Origin: Candidatus Omnitrophota bacterium | GTDB lineage: Bacteria; Omnitrophota; Gorgyraeia; DTHP01 | Direction: 5' to 3' | Assembly: GCA_023819145.1 (NCBI GenBank) | Contig: JAMWCW010000011.1 | Location: 1-48,791, forward strand | DNA length: 48,791 bases | Part shown: in pieces, positions 1 through 5,270 of the stretch | How positions within the stretch are numbered: the stretch's first letter is position 1 | How the letters are laid out: every line of letters begins with the position of its first letter | Notes under the pieces: generated by a model | Database searches by the model: none | What the model was told of the DNA's origin: nothing | The model's input: only the letters and a program-made list of their open reading frames with translations | Translations under genes and position numbers: made by a program

Positions 1-229
1 TAAACTCCCAGTTCCCTCAAGGTATCAAAGACACTGACAAAGAGCAGCTCTTTTTAATCTCTGATAACGGATGCCAACCGACTTCCCAGAGATTCATGAT
101 GAAACTGCGCTGTCTTGGGAATAAAAACGAGTTTTAAGAACCATCAAAGAGGACATTGTCTGGCCGTATGAGTGGGATAAACCGTTTGATTTTGAAATCG
201 CGCTTAACAAGTGGATAGCCGACTATTAA
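1..229 (+). pseudogene. IS3-family transposase (rve integrase core) remnant
   Basis: Reading from base 3, the sequence encodes a stretch containing SDNGCQPTS, the typical surroundings of the second catalytic Asp of IS3-type DDE transposases. It ends at a stop at 136-138. From base 140, in a different frame, the reading TIKEDIVWPYEW followed by an ALNKWIADY-like tail matches the region after the catalytic Glu, up to a stop at 227-229. The connecting piece that normally carries the NPKGNADTER-type segment with the catalytic Glu is missing. The element therefore has both an internal deletion and a frame change, and it is also cut by the window edge. It is dead, and it is the only clearly plus-strand coding trace in the window. 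Confidence 0.8.
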
Positions 230-233
230 TTAA

Positions 234-318: not shown

Positions 319-393
319 TGGCTGCCCCGCCTGGACTCGAACCAGGACTACCAGATCCAGAGTCTGGCGTGCTACCAGTTGCACTACAGGGCA
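319..393 (-). tRNA. tRNA-Gln (anticodon CTG)
   Basis: The minus strand folds into a complete cloverleaf. A 7-bp acceptor stem starts TGCCCTG, the D arm is GTGC/GCAC, and the anticodon stem is CCAGA/TCTGG with a loop giving anticodon CTG. The T arm is CCTGG/CCAGG with loop TTCGAGT. The discriminator base is G, as expected for glutamine tRNA, and the 3' CCA is encoded at 319-321. A decayed duplicate lies at 1950-2021. Confidence 0.93.
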
Positions 394-715: not shown

Positions 716-1843
716 TCAAGGCTTCTTACCATATATAACATAGGCATGAACGAATACTTGATTGCTTGTTCTTATAATTAAATTAAATCCAAGATTATGC
801 TCTGTTGTTATAAATCCGTTTTTTCCCATTAAATCCTTATATTTATACATTTCTAACCATGTATGACCATATGACCCATAAGTGTAAGAGGTTATCACTA
901 CTTCCTGACAAGATGGCCAAGAACCAGCAGAACTGATAATCTGCAAAGGAAGTTCTCTGTACATTGGACCAGTATTGGAAATAACTACCTCTATTCTATC
1001 AGTAATATCCTTGGGTAAGCCTAAACTTTCCCCATCTTCTGGTCTAATATAATGATTGAAGAAAATAATGTCTTTACCTGGCACATAACCATTAATGTAA
1101 GCTACTTCCTCCGCCTTTTCAATGCACTCTGGATCGCTTTCCAAAGCCACTATCTTCTTTGCGCCTAAGCGCAAGGCAACAATAGACAAAATACCATTTC
1201 CTGCACCAATATCCGCTACCACTTTACCTTCTACACCATTTTTAAGCATGTGCGCAATAACTACCAAGGTGGTGCGGTCTATAAAAGGAAGCGGAATATC
1301 AGGGTAATAAGTCTCATCAAGAACATCCGGTTGCCATTGGGTAGGATTCGTGTAGAAGATAATATTCTGTCCATACTCTCTTAAAAAATCTTCCCCTAAT
1401 TGCTTACGAATCTTCTCTAAAGAGGTCCCTTCTGCTTCATAATTTATAAATATCAATGGACCTAAACGGAGATACCTAAAATTCCTTTTCTGAAATAGGG
1501 GATCAGATCCTCTATAGGAATCATACTCAAGTTCGGCGTCTGCGAAATCGTAATCAAAATAGACAAAACCTTTTGAACTATCCCCCTCCGCACATAGGAG
1601 TCTTGTTCTTACGATATCCTTCTCTTCTATGCCTAATCTTTTAATCACCTCCTCTCCTAATCTTCTACTTTCCTTAGGCAAAAGCATAATTGCCTGCTTT
1701 AATTCTCCATAAGGTCTTATGCGTCGGGCATAAACCAAATTTGCAGAAATAAGTATATCTACCATGAGTAATAAACAGAATAATTTTAAGATATTTAAAA
1801 GTTTTGTTTCCTTCATCTTTGTTAATTTAAATAAGTTAACCAA
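716..1843 (-). CDS. Exported class I SAM-dependent methyltransferase-like protein (paralogue A)
   Basis: The catalytic domain carries a clear SAM motif I (DIGAGNG, residues 211-217), followed by an acidic residue at the end of strand 2 (LESDPE, about 234-239). This is the PrmA-like Rossmann arrangement. The usual post-motif II NPP-type signature is replaced by SNTGPMY (about 289-295), so the methyl acceptor cannot be guessed. The N-terminus is a signal peptide: a basic start, a hydrophobic core at about 15-37, and a VYA/RR cleavage-like site near residue 39. A TTG start at 1841-1843 is chosen because GGGAGG (1853-1858) lies nine bases upstream; the in-frame ATG at 1816 has no such site. It is paralogous to 4164-5270 and shares an almost identical DNA tract with it. 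SAM is not known in the periplasm, so an exported active enzyme would be odd; a binding or sensing role is possible. Confidence 0.75.
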   Translation of the reverse strand: MVNLFKLTKMKETKLLNILKLFCLLLMVDILISANLVYARRIRPYGELKQAIMLLPKESRRLGEEVIKRLGIEEKDIVRTRLLCAEGDSSKGFVYFDYDFADAELEYDSYRGSDPLFQKRNFRYLRLGPLIFINYEAEGTSLEKIRKQLGEDFLREYGQNIIFYTNPTQWQPDVLDETYYPDIPLPFIDRTTLVVIAHMLKNGVEGKVVADIGAGNGILSIVALRLGAKKIVALESDPECIEKAEEVAYINGYVPGKDIIFFNHYIRPEDGESLGLPKDITDRIEVVISNTGPMYRELPLQIISSAGSWPSCQEVVITSYTYGSYGHTWLEMYKYKDLMGKNGFITTEHNLGFNLIIRTSNQVFVHAYVIYGKKP

Positions 1844-1866
1844 TTATAATAACCTCCCATAATAAA

Positions 1867-1895
1867 AGTATGGCTAATAAACATACATTTGTCAA
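1867..1895 (-). promoter_or_regulatory. Predicted promoter of methyltransferase paralogue A
   Basis: A perfect TTGACA (1890-1895) is followed after 17 bases by CATACT (1867-1872). Transcription would start near 1860, leaving only the GGGAGG site and a short spacer before the TTG codon. The paralogous gene has the same layout, TTGACA-17-CATATT, which suggests the promoter was duplicated with the gene. Confidence 0.6.
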
Positions 1896-1949
1896 GGGGT
1901 AAGCAGGTTCATATCCAAAAGAGACAGCCACTTGTATATCTGCCGTTTC

Positions 1950-2021
1950 CTGCCCCGCTTGGACATGAACCAGGACTACGAGATCCATGGTCTGGCGTGC
2001 TACCAGTTGCACTACAGGGCA
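1950..2021 (-). pseudogene. Decayed tRNA-Gln copy
   Basis: The sequence is a full-length relative of the tRNA at 319-393. The acceptor stem and D arm are intact. The anticodon loop reads CCATGGA instead of CTCTGGA, losing the universal T33. The anticodon stem has a C-C mismatch (CCAGA/TCTCG), the T loop reads TTCATGT, and the T stem is broken. The encoded CCA is replaced by GAA. Similarity extends upstream through the leader to an identical ATTTTATAAC stretch at the -10 region. The whole transcription unit was therefore copied, not just the tRNA 3' end as in phage integration. Confidence 0.8.
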
Positions 2022-2125
2022 AAATTAGCTCTTAGTTGTTATTTTATGTAGATTTTATAACTTCGGGTGAGATTTTGTAAGGTAATAATAAAACTTAATA
2101 ACTTAAGCCTTTAACAATTATGAAC

Positions 2126-2890
2126 TTAGAAATCAACTCTTGCCCTTACATTCACAAGACTAAAAGAAACTATTTCTCCGATGAACCTATCTTTATAATA
2201 CAGTAACCAAGTTTTGGGTTCACTATTTCTGATAATGTGAAAATCTTCGGAAAAATGTCTTACTCCCTCTAATGTGGTTATGTTTTCTATGCTATAAGGA
2301 AAAAAAATACCGTAACTACCTTCTATATTAAATTCACAGCCATTATTTCGCAAAGTTAAAGCAAAAGAACCACCTTTTGCAATATTTCTAAATAAAGCAT
2401 CCAGTTCCTCGTATGCATAAACTTTCCCCTCTACTTCTATCTCTCTGTTCTCCGCAAAATTAAAAAACAACTCAAGTAAAGCGGGATTAAAGGTATCAGC
2501 CCCTATTAATTGTAAATTAGGATAACAATGTTCCTTAAAATATCTAAATAATGAACTTATAACTCTACTTCCAATTCCTTGACTTCTGAAATCGCGATTT
2601 ATATGTATATTATTAATAAAAACCTCATTACGTTCTTCATCTAAAGTTACAGTTATCCAACCAACATCCACTCCTTGATATTTAATGCGCCATTCTGATT
2701 TATGAGGATACTCCAGATAAATATTTAGTAAAAGCTCTATACCCTCCCCAACAACTATTACTTGTCTAAAATTCTCCCCTCTTACCCTTCGCGATGAATG
2801 TAGTTGGTGAGAAAAATAATAAGGTTGTTCTACTAAGAATCTTATACTTAAAACCACTAGTATAATAATCTTAATTTTTAAGTATCTCAT
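2126..2890 (-). CDS. Membrane-anchored GNAT-family N-acetyltransferase
   Basis: The GNAT core is visible at about residues 65-150. Its motif A includes the acetyl-CoA pyrophosphate loop RSQGIG (102-107), followed by a helix and the FNPALLELFFNF segment typical of motif B. Residues 4-20 form a hydrophobic stretch behind a basic start, predicting an N-terminal anchor or signal. The roughly 100-residue C-terminal part is not recognised. The start is ATG, with only a weak GGGG about 12 bases upstream. It is flanked by two exported methyltransferases and an anchored cupin. The substrate is unknown, and the anchor would put an acetyl-CoA enzyme on the periplasmic side if topology follows the positive-inside rule. 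Confidence 0.7.
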   Translation of the reverse strand: MRYLKIKIIILVVLSIRFLVEQPYYFSHQLHSSRRVRGENFRQVIVVGEGIELLLNIYLEYPHKSEWRIKYQGVDVGWITVTLDEERNEVFINNIHINRDFRSQGIGSRVISSLFRYFKEHCYPNLQLIGADTFNPALLELFFNFAENREIEVEGKVYAYEELDALFRNIAKGGSFALTLRNNGCEFNIEGSYGIFFPYSIENITTLEGVRHFSEDFHIIRNSEPKTWLLYYKDRFIGEIVSFSLVNVRARVDF

Positions 2891-2954
2891 AAACTTAATA
2901 ACCCCATAAACTTCTAATAAACAGAAAGATAGAAACTGTCCCTACAAAAGGAAT

Positions 2955-4067
2955 TTAACGCATGGTAAAAACTCCACCAATAGAGGTAGAAGACTTAAGA
3001 ATCTCAGCGATTTTCTCAGAAAGAGCATTTCTTTCTAAAAACTCAGGGATGCCCATAATAGTTTGTTTAAATTGAAATCCTAAATGGAACGAACCAGGAA
3101 TCTGAATAGCAATGTGTTTATATTCGTCTTCACTGCTTATCCTAATTATCGCATGAGCTAAACCTTCTTTAGCGATGAACAGATCTCGCGGGCCAAGAAC
3201 AGCTAACTTTATGGATTCGGCATCTTGATAAAGAATAGCCGCCTTACCACTTACAATATAATATACCTCGGTAACTACTTCGTTGTGGCGATGAAAATTC
3301 TCTTGCGTACGTAGTAAACTAAAATCTTCAAAACCATCTGTTTTTCCTTCAAAAATAAACATCGAAACAGAACTCATGGGTGCAGAAAGCACCATATTGT
3401 CAATGAGCCACTCCGGCTCAAGTTTACCGGTAAAGAGATTTCTACGGTTTTCACGCTCAATAACCACTATTCCCTCATCTTCCTTATCATTTACCCACGC
3501 TCTTGGAGAAATAATCCCGCTCTCATTCCAGCCAAGTTGCGGAAAACTGGGGAAATTTCTACTATAGGCCATAAAACGTTCATTCAATCCTTCTTTCTTC
3601 TTCATCACATAAACCAAAATCTCACCCTCTGTCTCCTCAAAACGCGCTTCTCTGCCTCCACTAATATAAACGATACCCTTCTTATTTAAAGTGCAAACTT
3701 CTCCTTCTGCGCTGATCACCATCTTTTTATCCTCAATATTTATTACCAATGTATCGTATTCAAAGAATTCTCTTCCTGAAAGAAATGCCTTGGCTTCTTT
3801 CCCGGAATAGATTGAGGTATCGGTTCTTGCATCGATGATAAAACCCTGCCAATCTTTTCCTTGAAAAGGTATAAAAGGTCCCTGCTTTTCTCTTATACGC
3901 CGAACTGTATCATTAGGGTAAAGAAAATAATTTTTAGTTTTTTCATAAACTAATTTTGGGTTGTGTCTTTGGAAATAAAAGCTCCTCTCCACACCTAAAT
4001 AAATCAAGCAGGATACAACGAGCAAAAATATACTGCTCAGTTTTTTTATCAATCTGTAGTTAATCAT
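2955..4067 (-). CDS. Membrane-anchored cupin-domain protein
   Basis: The C-terminal third is a single cupin barrel. Motif 1 contains HRH (residues 259-261) with E267 and G274, and motif 2 includes H305, giving a plausible metal site. The N-terminus has one hydrophobic segment (about 12-26) after KK, predicting an anchor. The middle part (about 70-250) is beta-rich and may hold a second, degenerate cupin-like half, but I cannot assign it. The barrel could be enzymatic, sugar-binding or regulatory. It lies between the GNAT and the second methyltransferase, with gaps of 64 and 96 bases, all in the same direction. Confidence 0.65.
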   Translation of the reverse strand: MINYRLIKKLSSIFLLVVSCLIYLGVERSFYFQRHNPKLVYEKTKNYFLYPNDTVRRIREKQGPFIPFQGKDWQGFIIDARTDTSIYSGKEAKAFLSGREFFEYDTLVINIEDKKMVISAEGEVCTLNKKGIVYISGGREARFEETEGEILVYVMKKKEGLNERFMAYSRNFPSFPQLGWNESGIISPRAWVNDKEDEGIVVIERENRRNLFTGKLEPEWLIDNMVLSAPMSSVSMFIFEGKTDGFEDFSLLRTQENFHRHNEVVTEVYYIVSGKAAILYQDAESIKLAVLGPRDLFIAKEGLAHAIIRISSEDEYKHIAIQIPGSFHLGFQFKQTIMGIPEFLERNALSEKIAEILKSSTSIGGVFTMR

Positions 4068-4163
4068 TTAAGTGCCTGGATTGGTTTTATTTCTTTTATA
4101 TATAACCTATAAATATCTCCCCTGAAACACAAAAAATCTTCGTTTTAATAAATAAGTTCTCCA

Positions 4164-5270
4164 CTAAGGCGCTCTACCGCACAACAAATAAGCATCTACA
4201 AAATATTCTCTTTCATCATGACCATTCACAACAAACTCAAGTTTAAATCCCAGCTGAGCAATGTCCGCATTAATAAATCCAACTTCTTTCATTAATTGTA
4301 TGTAGGTCTGTTCTGAAACAACTTCGCGCTCAATCACAGGTATATATCTGTAAGAAGTCAAGGCTATCTCACGACATGCTGGCCAACTCCCTGCAGCTTT
4401 GATAATCTGCAGAGGAAGATGGCGATACATTGGACCGGTGTTAGAAACAACTACTTCTATGCTCTCAGTGATACTTTTAGGTAAACCTAAATTCCTGTCG
4501 TCTTTTGAATCGATATAATGGCTGATGAAAATAATATCCTTGCCCGCAACATAACCATTAATGTAAGCTACTTCCTCCGCCTTTTCAATGCACTCTGGAT
4601 CGCTTTCCAAAGCCACTATCTTCTTTGCGCCTAAGCGCAGGGCAACAATAGACAAAATACCATTTCCTGCACCAATATCTGCTACTACTTTACCTTCTAC
4701 CCCATTTTTAAGCAGATGCGCAACCACTACCAGCGTAGTGCGGTCAATAAAAGGAAGGGGTAGGGGATAGAATTCACTTAACTCTCTTGGCTGCCAAGGA
4801 GCAGGTTTTGTGTAGAAAATAATATTTTGCCCATACTGTTTTAAAAAATCTTCTCCCAATTTTTCGCGAATCTTCTCTAAAGACGTCCCTTTTGCTTCAT
4901 AGTTTATAAATACAAGCGGACCGAACCGCAGATATCTAAAATTTTTATAAGGAATTTCATCATCCGAGCCATCATAGCAATCAAATTCGATTTCTGCATA
5001 AGGAGCATCATATTCAACCATTACCGTTTCCTGAAATTTTTCACCCGCTTCATCTGTAGCTTCTTGCCATTCTTTACGCATAAACATTGTTCTTTTAATA
5101 TCACTCTTTTCTATACCCAATCTTCTGATTACCTCTTCTCCTAATCTTCTGCTCTCTGCATGCGAAAGCATAATCGCCTGTTTCGCTTCCCTGGTGTAAG
5201 ACCTTAACCTGCGGGCAAATGCAGAGTCTGTAGAAATAAGGGTTTCTACTATTAAAAAGAAACATAACAA
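4164..5270 (-). CDS. Exported class I SAM-dependent methyltransferase-like protein (paralogue B)
   Basis: It is a homologue of 716-1843 over its full length, with SAM motif I at residues 198-204, LESDPE near 221-226 and the same SNTGPMY signature. The signal peptide is hydrophobic with an AFA/RR cleavage-like site near residue 19. The given start is a TTG with no ribosome-binding site. An ATG at 5297-5299, matching the internal ATG of paralogue A, is out of frame with the rest. Alignment to A shows a net four-base shortening between that ATG and codon 1, so the natural start may have been lost by an indel. It has its own predicted promoter at 5345-5373. Confidence 0.72.
   Translation of the reverse strand: MLCFFLIVETLISTDSAFARRLRSYTREAKQAIMLSHAESRRLGEEVIRRLGIEKSDIKRTMFMRKEWQEATDEAGEKFQETVMVEYDAPYAEIEFDCYDGSDDEIPYKNFRYLRFGPLVFINYEAKGTSLEKIREKLGEDFLKQYGQNIIFYTKPAPWQPRELSEFYPLPLPFIDRTTLVVVAHLLKNGVEGKVVADIGAGNGILSIVALRLGAKKIVALESDPECIEKAEEVAYINGYVAGKDIIFISHYIDSKDDRNLGLPKSITESIEVVVSNTGPMYRHLPLQIIKAAGSWPACREIALTSYRYIPVIEREVVSEQTYIQLMKEVGFINADIAQLGFKLEFVVNGHDEREYFVDAYLLCGRAP

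What the first reader, a model, noticed from the sequence alone, without database searches (positions are those of the whole stretch)
716..5270. Four neighbouring proteins with export or anchor signals on cytoplasmic enzyme folds
Two methyltransferases, a GNAT acetyltransferase and a cupin all start with a signal peptide or transmembrane anchor. SAM and acetyl-CoA are not expected in the periplasm, so either cofactors are provided there, the domains face inward, or they have become binders. The grouping, with gene duplication inside it, looks like an undescribed envelope-associated system.
Basis: partly seen in the sequence, partly recalled or inferred. Interest (0 to 1): 0.75.

Follow-up and report, generated by a model that had tools for sequence, protein, structure and literature searches.

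The report
Secreted-type metabolic enzymes sharing N-terminal tag
The four odd genes belong to a genome-wide set of ordinary metabolic enzymes, including a second, divergent glycolysis, that carry a membrane-export signal followed by an Arg-Arg tag, and related genomes fuse the same enzymes into long signal-peptide proteins, which suggests these bacteria run some central metabolism outside their own cytoplasm.

Summary
The four minus-strand genes are real, and all start with a hydrophobic helix. The four-gene cluster itself does not recur in other genomes, but it opens onto something larger. In a 57% sample of the genome, 30 of 193 single-helix proteins carry RR-x-[KR] shortly after the helix: 38-fold over background (p about 1e-36). 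All four window proteins have it. The tagged set includes a ROK-like kinase, phosphoglucose isomerase, PFK, aldolase, GAPDH, PGK and a split PEP synthase, mostly on one ~42-kb stretch. Untagged PGK, PFK, GAPDH and TIM also exist. Elsewhere in the phylum, at least 20 genomes hold PGK, GAPDH or TIM inside long ORFs (about 800-14,650 aa). Wherever I could see their true N-termini, these begin with signal peptides. One of at least 2723 aa carries PEP synthase, PGK, phosphoglycerate mutase and enolase. Many catalytic residues are kept. Tagged proteins are cysteine-poor like exported proteins, and unusually lysine-poor. Best reading: an exported second set of metabolic enzymes. Destination (prey or host, periplasm, inner compartment) and function are unproven. 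I found no description of it in the open-access papers searched.

The parts
4164..5270 (-). MT2: PrmA-like SAM methyltransferase with N-terminal hydrophobic helix and tag ARRLR; TTG start, 5' end doubtful
5202..5213 (-). RRLR tag of MT2, directly after AFA (possible signal peptidase site)
   Evidence: position; tag statistics
4659..4679 (-). SAM-binding motif DIGAGNG of MT2
   Evidence: sequence; alignment
2955..4067 (-). Double-cupin-like protein with N-terminal helix and tag RRIR; homologues lie inside ORFs of 852-7,981 aa elsewhere
3891..3902 (-). RRIR tag of the cupin protein (further from its helix than in the other three)
2126..2890 (-). GNAT acetyltransferase with N-terminal helix and tag RRVR; acetyl-CoA loop RSQGIGSR intact
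2780..2791 (-). RRVR tag of the GNAT protein
716..1843 (-). MT1: paralogue of MT2 (64% identity) with N-terminal helix and tag ARRIR
1715..1726 (-). RRIR tag of MT1, directly after VYA (possible signal peptidase site)
1193..1213 (-). SAM-binding motif DIGAGNG of MT1
   Evidence: sequence

Best explanation
The four proteins are members of a genome-wide class of extracytoplasmic metabolic enzymes. Shown here: each carries an N-terminal hydrophobic helix followed by an RR-[ILV]-[KR] tag; the class includes a second, divergent set of glycolytic enzymes beside the normal untagged copies; and other genomes of the phylum carry such enzymes fused in long proteins behind cleavable-looking signal peptides. 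Inferred: the helix drives Sec translocation (n-regions are positive, so C-out). In the AxA-RR proteins signal peptidase cuts just before the tag; in the rest the helix stays as an anchor or is cut near the tag. The tag is then a sorting or second processing mark. Because catalytic residues are largely kept, the enzymes most likely work outside the producer's cytoplasm, where substrates, nucleotides and cofactors exist. I think the opened prey or host cell is the likeliest place, where they would turn its sugar phosphates, PEP and cofactors into products the bacterium can take up. The methyltransferases, GNAT and cupin would act on the same partner's molecules with its SAM and acetyl-CoA. My estimates: class and tag real 0.95; translocation 0.75; catalytic activity 0.65; prey or host side 0.35.
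For: RRx[KR] 30 times after the helix against 7 in 56,930 background positions, 38-fold, p about 1e-36. Tagged glycolytic set by Pfam, with untagged PGK, PFK, GAPDH and TIM elsewhere in the genome. Signal-peptide enzyme fusions in other genomes: PGK+PPDK, TIM+enolase, GAPDH+PGK+TIM, PPDK+PGK+iPGM+enolase. The window cupin's homologue shares a 7,890-aa ORF with a PFK. Catalytic residues kept in GAPDH, PEP synthase, TIM, most PGK columns and the cupin. Composition classifier% of tagged bodies exported against 16% of cytosolic proteins; Cys 0.56% against 1.32%. N-flank more positive than C-flank in 27 against 8. Host-dependent or predatory traits of the phylum are reported (PMC10066038).
Against: No localisation or activity data. 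Basic residues just after a signal sequence are, from general knowledge, expected to slow Sec export. Many tagged helices lack a clear AxA site. Own tagged PGK has lost a substrate arginine and the GGGDS aspartate. Long-branch divergence of the PGKs also fits neofunctionalisation. No tagged TIM was found in this genome. ATP/ADP translocase was not found, though that search had no positive control. Nothing about these proteins directly places them in prey or host. Lysine depletion is unexplained.
Confidence: 0.6

Rival explanations
1. Membrane-tethered cytoplasmic metabolon or internal compartment: the N-terminal helix is an uncleaved anchor, the RR-K tag is a topogenic 'inside' signal, and the enzymes face the cytoplasm, or line an internal membrane-bound space, where SAM, ATP and acetyl-CoA are available.
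For: Supplies cofactors without further assumptions. Positive residues after a helix can mark the cytoplasmic side. Tagged proteins have a higher C-flank charge over 30 residues than untagged ones (+2.05 against +0.45). Signal peptides on proteins linked to internal membranes are reported for the wider PVC group (PMC4452313).
Against: N-flanks are still the more positive side in most (27 against 8). Long-ORF counterparts have textbook n-h-c signal peptides with AxA sites. Cysteine content and composition are exported-like.
Confidence: 0.2
2. Exported but non-catalytic: enzyme folds reused as adhesins, binding modules or structural bricks of the cell coat, like moonlighting surface GAPDH, enolase and PGK in other bacteria.
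For: Rapid sequence divergence. Several tagged bodies have large parts without any Pfam domain. Own PGK has lost some ligand residues. Adhesive roles are proposed for giant ORFs (PMC10066038).
Against: Catalytic residues are kept while structural residues drift. Consecutive steps of one pathway are fused together, which a binder role does not predict.
Confidence: 0.16
3. Artefact or decay: mis-called starts, frameshifts or assembly joins that put hydrophobic stretches in front of ordinary enzymes, or decaying gene copies.
For: MT2's 5' end looks broken. Contigs are from draft assemblies. One giant ORF (G037) starts with a partial, signal-free PGK next to a normal GAPDH and looks like a read-through.
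Against: Same architecture in at least 20 other genomes from many families. Tag position and sequence are constrained genome-wide. Long uninterrupted frames keep active-site motifs. None of 68 PGK ORFs of other phyla is long: 391-480 aa.
Confidence: 0.04

Closest known systems
Giant ORFs of Omnitrophota (Seymour et al. 2023, PMC10066038; also PMC12057145)
   Same: Same phylum as assumed here; other genomes in my sample carry homologues of the window cupin and of glycolytic enzymes inside very long ORFs.
   Different: The window genes are single-domain proteins of 254-375 aa, not >20 kb. Those papers describe giant ORFs as having few annotated domains, adhesion or carbohydrate domains; in the passages I read they do not mention glycolytic enzymes behind signal peptides or an N-terminal tag.
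Moonlighting surface glycolytic enzymes of bacteria (general knowledge)
   Same: GAPDH, PGK, enolase, TIM and aldolase found outside the cytoplasm.
   Different: Those are the normal cytosolic copies and have no signal peptide; here separate, divergent copies carry dedicated N-terminal signals.
Glycosomal or mitochondrion-targeted glycolysis of some protists (general knowledge)
   Same: Glycolysis relocated by targeting signals; the targeted copy coexists with a cytosolic one; enzyme fusions occur.
   Different: Eukaryotic organelles and import machinery; no homology of signals claimed.
PEXEL export motif of Plasmodium (general knowledge)
   Same: Works alike in layout: hydrophobic signal followed by a short Arg-containing motif on many unrelated exported proteins.
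   Different: Motif RR-[ILV]-[KR], not RxLxE/Q/D; bacterial; no protease or translocon identified.
PrmA (ribosomal protein L11 methyltransferase)
   Same: SAM-binding core of MT1 and MT2 matches (E about 1e-10).
   Different: Other N-terminal domain, far below the NCBIfam equivalog cut-off (43.7 against 188 bits), and tagged.

Membership tests
RR-K tagged class (defined here) | N-terminal hydrophobic helix, then RRx[KR] 14-46 residues after its start | tested here: met
   All four window proteins; 30 proteins in the sample, 38-fold enrichment.
Sec/SPI exported protein | Positive n-region, hydrophobic core, AxA-type cleavage site | tested here: inconclusive
   MT1 has all three (VYA before RR); MT2 has AFA but no n-region in its present start; GNAT and cupin have n- and h-regions without a clear AxA. 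No SignalP-type predictor was available.
Tat substrate | Twin-arginine motif before the hydrophobic core | tested here: not met
   RR lies after the hydrophobic core in all four.
PrmA (L11 methyltransferase) | Full-length match above the NCBIfam equivalog cut-off | tested here: not met
   MT1 43.7 bits against 188; only the SAM core aligns.
Omnitrophota giant ORFs (>20 kb) | ORF longer than 20 kb | tested here: not met
   Window ORFs are 254-375 aa; only homologous domains occur in long ORFs elsewhere.
Omnitrophota phylum | Taxonomic placement of the genome | not tested
The presence of giant ORFs in the relatives fits.
Second glycolysis outside the cytoplasm | Tagged or signal-peptide copies besides untagged cytosolic ones | tested here: met
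   PGK, PFK and GAPDH have both in this genome.
Second glycolysis outside the cytoplasm | Measured location and activity | not testable with these tools
   Needs fusions, proteomics and enzyme assays.

The most novel reading that the evidence does not exclude
A bacterial phylum exports a working second glycolysis, plus accessory enzymes such as methyltransferases, GNATs and cupins, into prey or host cells or another extracytoplasmic space, using an N-terminal helix plus RR-K (or LRxP-like) tag that works like a bacterial PEXEL, either as single tagged proteins or as giant polyproteins.
Probability: 0.3. Interest if true: 0.96.

Novelty: categorically new. Interest (0 to 1): 0.86.

Why it matters
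Central carbon metabolism is regarded as cytoplasmic in bacteria. A phylum that keeps a normal glycolysis and also encodes a divergent, signal-peptide-bearing copy would be a new kind of metabolic organisation. It would give a testable function to part of the otherwise unexplained giant proteins of these small, partly predatory or host-dependent bacteria. The tag gives a simple genome-wide handle to list the whole exported enzyme set and to look for the machinery that recognises it.

Tried and rejected
Four-gene system: rejected, no recurrence. Tat route: RR is on the wrong side of the helix. Base composition or foreign origin as the cause of lysine depletion: GC and GC3 of tagged genes equal the rest. 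PGK tree to decide one or several origins: unresolved because of very long branches. AlphaFold models of MT (two-sequence alignment) and cupin (single sequence) were too poor to use (mean pLDDT 48 and 35), so no fold search was run. The one genome-contig scan, with tagged PGK, returned only PGKs of other phyla, which served as controls. ATP/ADP translocase search in the own genome: negative, without a ringing control. The search thresholds for RR positions were chosen after seeing the first examples; the enrichment was then measured on a larger sample that includes those examples. LRxP and LAP motifs in other families are post hoc patterns on few sequences and only suggestive. Literature searches found no report of the phenomenon; only open-access papers were searchable.
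Full report
OBSERVATION. Four minus-strand ORFs stand at the reported coordinates: MT2 (4164-5270), cupin (2955-4067), GNAT (2126-2890) and MT1 (716-1843). Each has a hydrophobic segment at its N-terminus. MT1 and MT2 are 64% identical. A third paralogue lies at G000:C3, about 121,950-122,990, with the same kind of N-terminus. Pfam supports a PrmA-like SAM core and a GNAT fold; the cupin is below Pfam cut-offs, but its HxH..E..H ligands are invariant in seven homologues. The SAM motif DIGAGNG is intact in both MTs, and the acetyl-CoA loop RSQGIGSR in the GNAT (sequence). The MT2 5' end is doubtful: its start is a TTG without an n-region, and the profile match continues upstream through two stops. 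The rest of the 48.8-kb contig looks mostly like ordinary housekeeping genes.

THE FOUR GENES AS A CLUSTER. The MT family is confined to this genome among 285, and its N-terminal domain among 193. GNAT homologues occur in two genomes of another family, and the one whose start is complete also has a hydrophobic N-terminus followed by RRVR. Cupin homologues occur in six genomes, inside ORFs of 852-7,981 aa. The cluster as such does not recur.

A GENOME-WIDE TAG. In 0.85 Mb of the 1.51-Mb genome, 193 proteins have an N-terminal hydrophobic segment and at most one further one. RR is enriched 17-35 residues after the start of that segment (3.7-fold, p 8e-11), with I/V/L next and K/R after that. RRx[KR] occurs 30 times in the zone after the helix against 7 times in 56,930 positions elsewhere in the same proteins (38-fold, p about 1e-36). 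All four window proteins carry it (RRLR, RRIR, RRVR, RRIR). The same tag is on four proteins of G023, a genome of another family. It is not a Tat motif, because it follows the helix.

WHAT THE TAGGED PROTEINS ARE. Pfam finds CofD, ROK (just under its cut-off), PGI, glucosamine-6-phosphate isomerase, PRPP synthase N-domain, PPDK_N, PEP-utiliser domains, asparaginase and an aminotransferase. It also finds a methyltransferase, PGK, GAPDH, class II aldolase, PFK, a second aminotransferase and a uridine-kinase-like protein, and SNase and FeoA. PPDK_N and PEP-utiliser are two adjacent genes, each with its own helix and RR, and the second resembles the C-terminal part of PEP synthase. Most glycolytic members lie in one stretch, C1 about 43-85 kb. 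Untagged copies of PGK, PFK, GAPDH and TIM are present elsewhere, so this is a second set.

THE SAME THING ACROSS THE PHYLUM. Beside a canonical PGK in nearly every genome, 14 other genomes carry a PGK or part of one in ORFs of 822-14,650 aa. TIM occurs in long ORFs in about 15 of 78 genomes, and divergent GAPDH in ORFs of 2,002-8,448 aa; together at least 20 other genomes. Where the 5' end was in hand, these ORFs begin with signal-peptide-like N-termini. The exception is G037, whose partial PGK opens a giant frame without a signal and looks like a read-through. Domain runs: G038 has three adjacent signal-peptide ORFs (PGK+PPDK; TIM+enolase; an aldolase-like domain); G059 has GAPDH+PGK+TIM; G071 TIM+GAPDH+PGK; G010 PGK+GPI; G013 PPDK+PGK+phosphoglycerate mutase+enolase; G032 PGK+GAPDH+GPI; G066 GAPDH+aldolase+GPI+PGK (the N-termini of G032 and G066 were not in the fetched stretch). 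The window cupin's homologue shares a 7,890-aa ORF with a PFK in G038. None of 68 PGK ORFs from other phyla is long (391-480 aa), and only one has a weak N-terminal hydrophobic stretch.

ACTIVE OR DEAD. In PGK, catalytic and ligand-binding columns are mostly kept in the long-ORF copies while structural columns drift. The own tagged GAPDH keeps SCTTN, the active-site histidine and WYDNE at low identity. PEP synthase keeps its catalytic histidine and GICGQ. TIM of G038 has GHSERR and AYEPVWAIG. The own tagged PFK has GGDD and KTIDGD, which from general knowledge resembles the PPi-dependent type. The own tagged PGK, however, has lost a conserved substrate arginine and the GGGDS aspartate. Activity is therefore likely for several but not shown for any.

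INSIDE OR OUTSIDE. N-flanks are more positive than C-flanks in most tagged proteins (27 against 8), favouring C-out. A composition classifier trained on this genome (AUC 0.88)% of tagged bodies exported, and 16% of cytosolic proteins. Cys is 0.56% against 1.32% in cytosolic proteins. Lysine is 5.7% against 9.6% (cytosolic) and 9.2% (other exported), at equal GC (p 3e-14). Export explains the cysteine but not the lysine depletion, which sets the class apart and is unexplained. Long ORFs of other genomes show a weaker lysine drop (7.8 against 9.0%) and the same cysteine drop.

MECHANISM. Shown: tag, class, second enzyme set, signal-peptide fusions, retained active sites. Inferred: Sec translocation; cutting near the tag; action outside the cytoplasm; supply of nucleotides, SAM and acetyl-CoA by an opened prey or host cell. 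The last step rests on the reported host-dependent and predatory traits of the phylum and on higher levels of a giant protein in attached cells (PMC10066038), not on data about these proteins. Rivals: a membrane metabolon facing the cytoplasm or an inner compartment; exported non-catalytic modules; artefact.

KNOWN OR NEW. Giant ORFs of the phylum are known, but are reported as having few annotated domains (PMC10066038, PMC12057145). I found no report of signal-peptide glycolytic enzymes or of the tag.

Noticed in passing
G000 sample, 31 tagged ORFs: Tagged proteins have 5.7% lysine against 9.2-9.6% in all other proteins at the same GC, and a net charge of -2.8 per 100 residues. Cause unknown.
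   Followed up: partly
L030:1276-4870 (G000:C1 about 81.3-84.9 kb): PEP synthase split into two adjacent genes, each with its own hydrophobic N-terminus and RR motif.
   Followed up: partly
L060:15268-16806: Tagged PFK has GGDD and KTIDGD, a pattern that resembles PPi-dependent PFKs (type assignment from general knowledge).
   Followed up: no
L017:1227-5955 (G000:C3 about 119.7-124.5 kb): Another tagged neighbourhood: a nuclease-like 689-aa ORF, the third MT paralogue, and a FeoA domain behind an N-terminal helix.
   Followed up: partly
window 319-393 and 1949-2022: tRNA-Gln sits beyond MT1, and a tRNA-His call lies between MT1 and GNAT with nearly the same sequence around it; one may be a degenerate duplicate.
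   Followed up: no
window 1-230: Possible remnant of an IS3-type transposase at the contig end, read by eye from the sequence.
   Followed up: no
L199:1-10555 (G037): A 24,209-aa frame opens with only the first half of a PGK beside a normal GAPDH gene; probably a read-through or assembly join.
   Followed up: no
L059:2879-14290: 3,803-aa ORF with a signal-like N-terminus and a glucoamylase domain, in a row of further large signal-bearing ORFs.
   Followed up: no
L051, L227, L192, L191, L193, L195: Other families show LRxP or LAP-like motifs shortly after the signal, perhaps the counterpart of RRxK (post hoc).
   Followed up: partly
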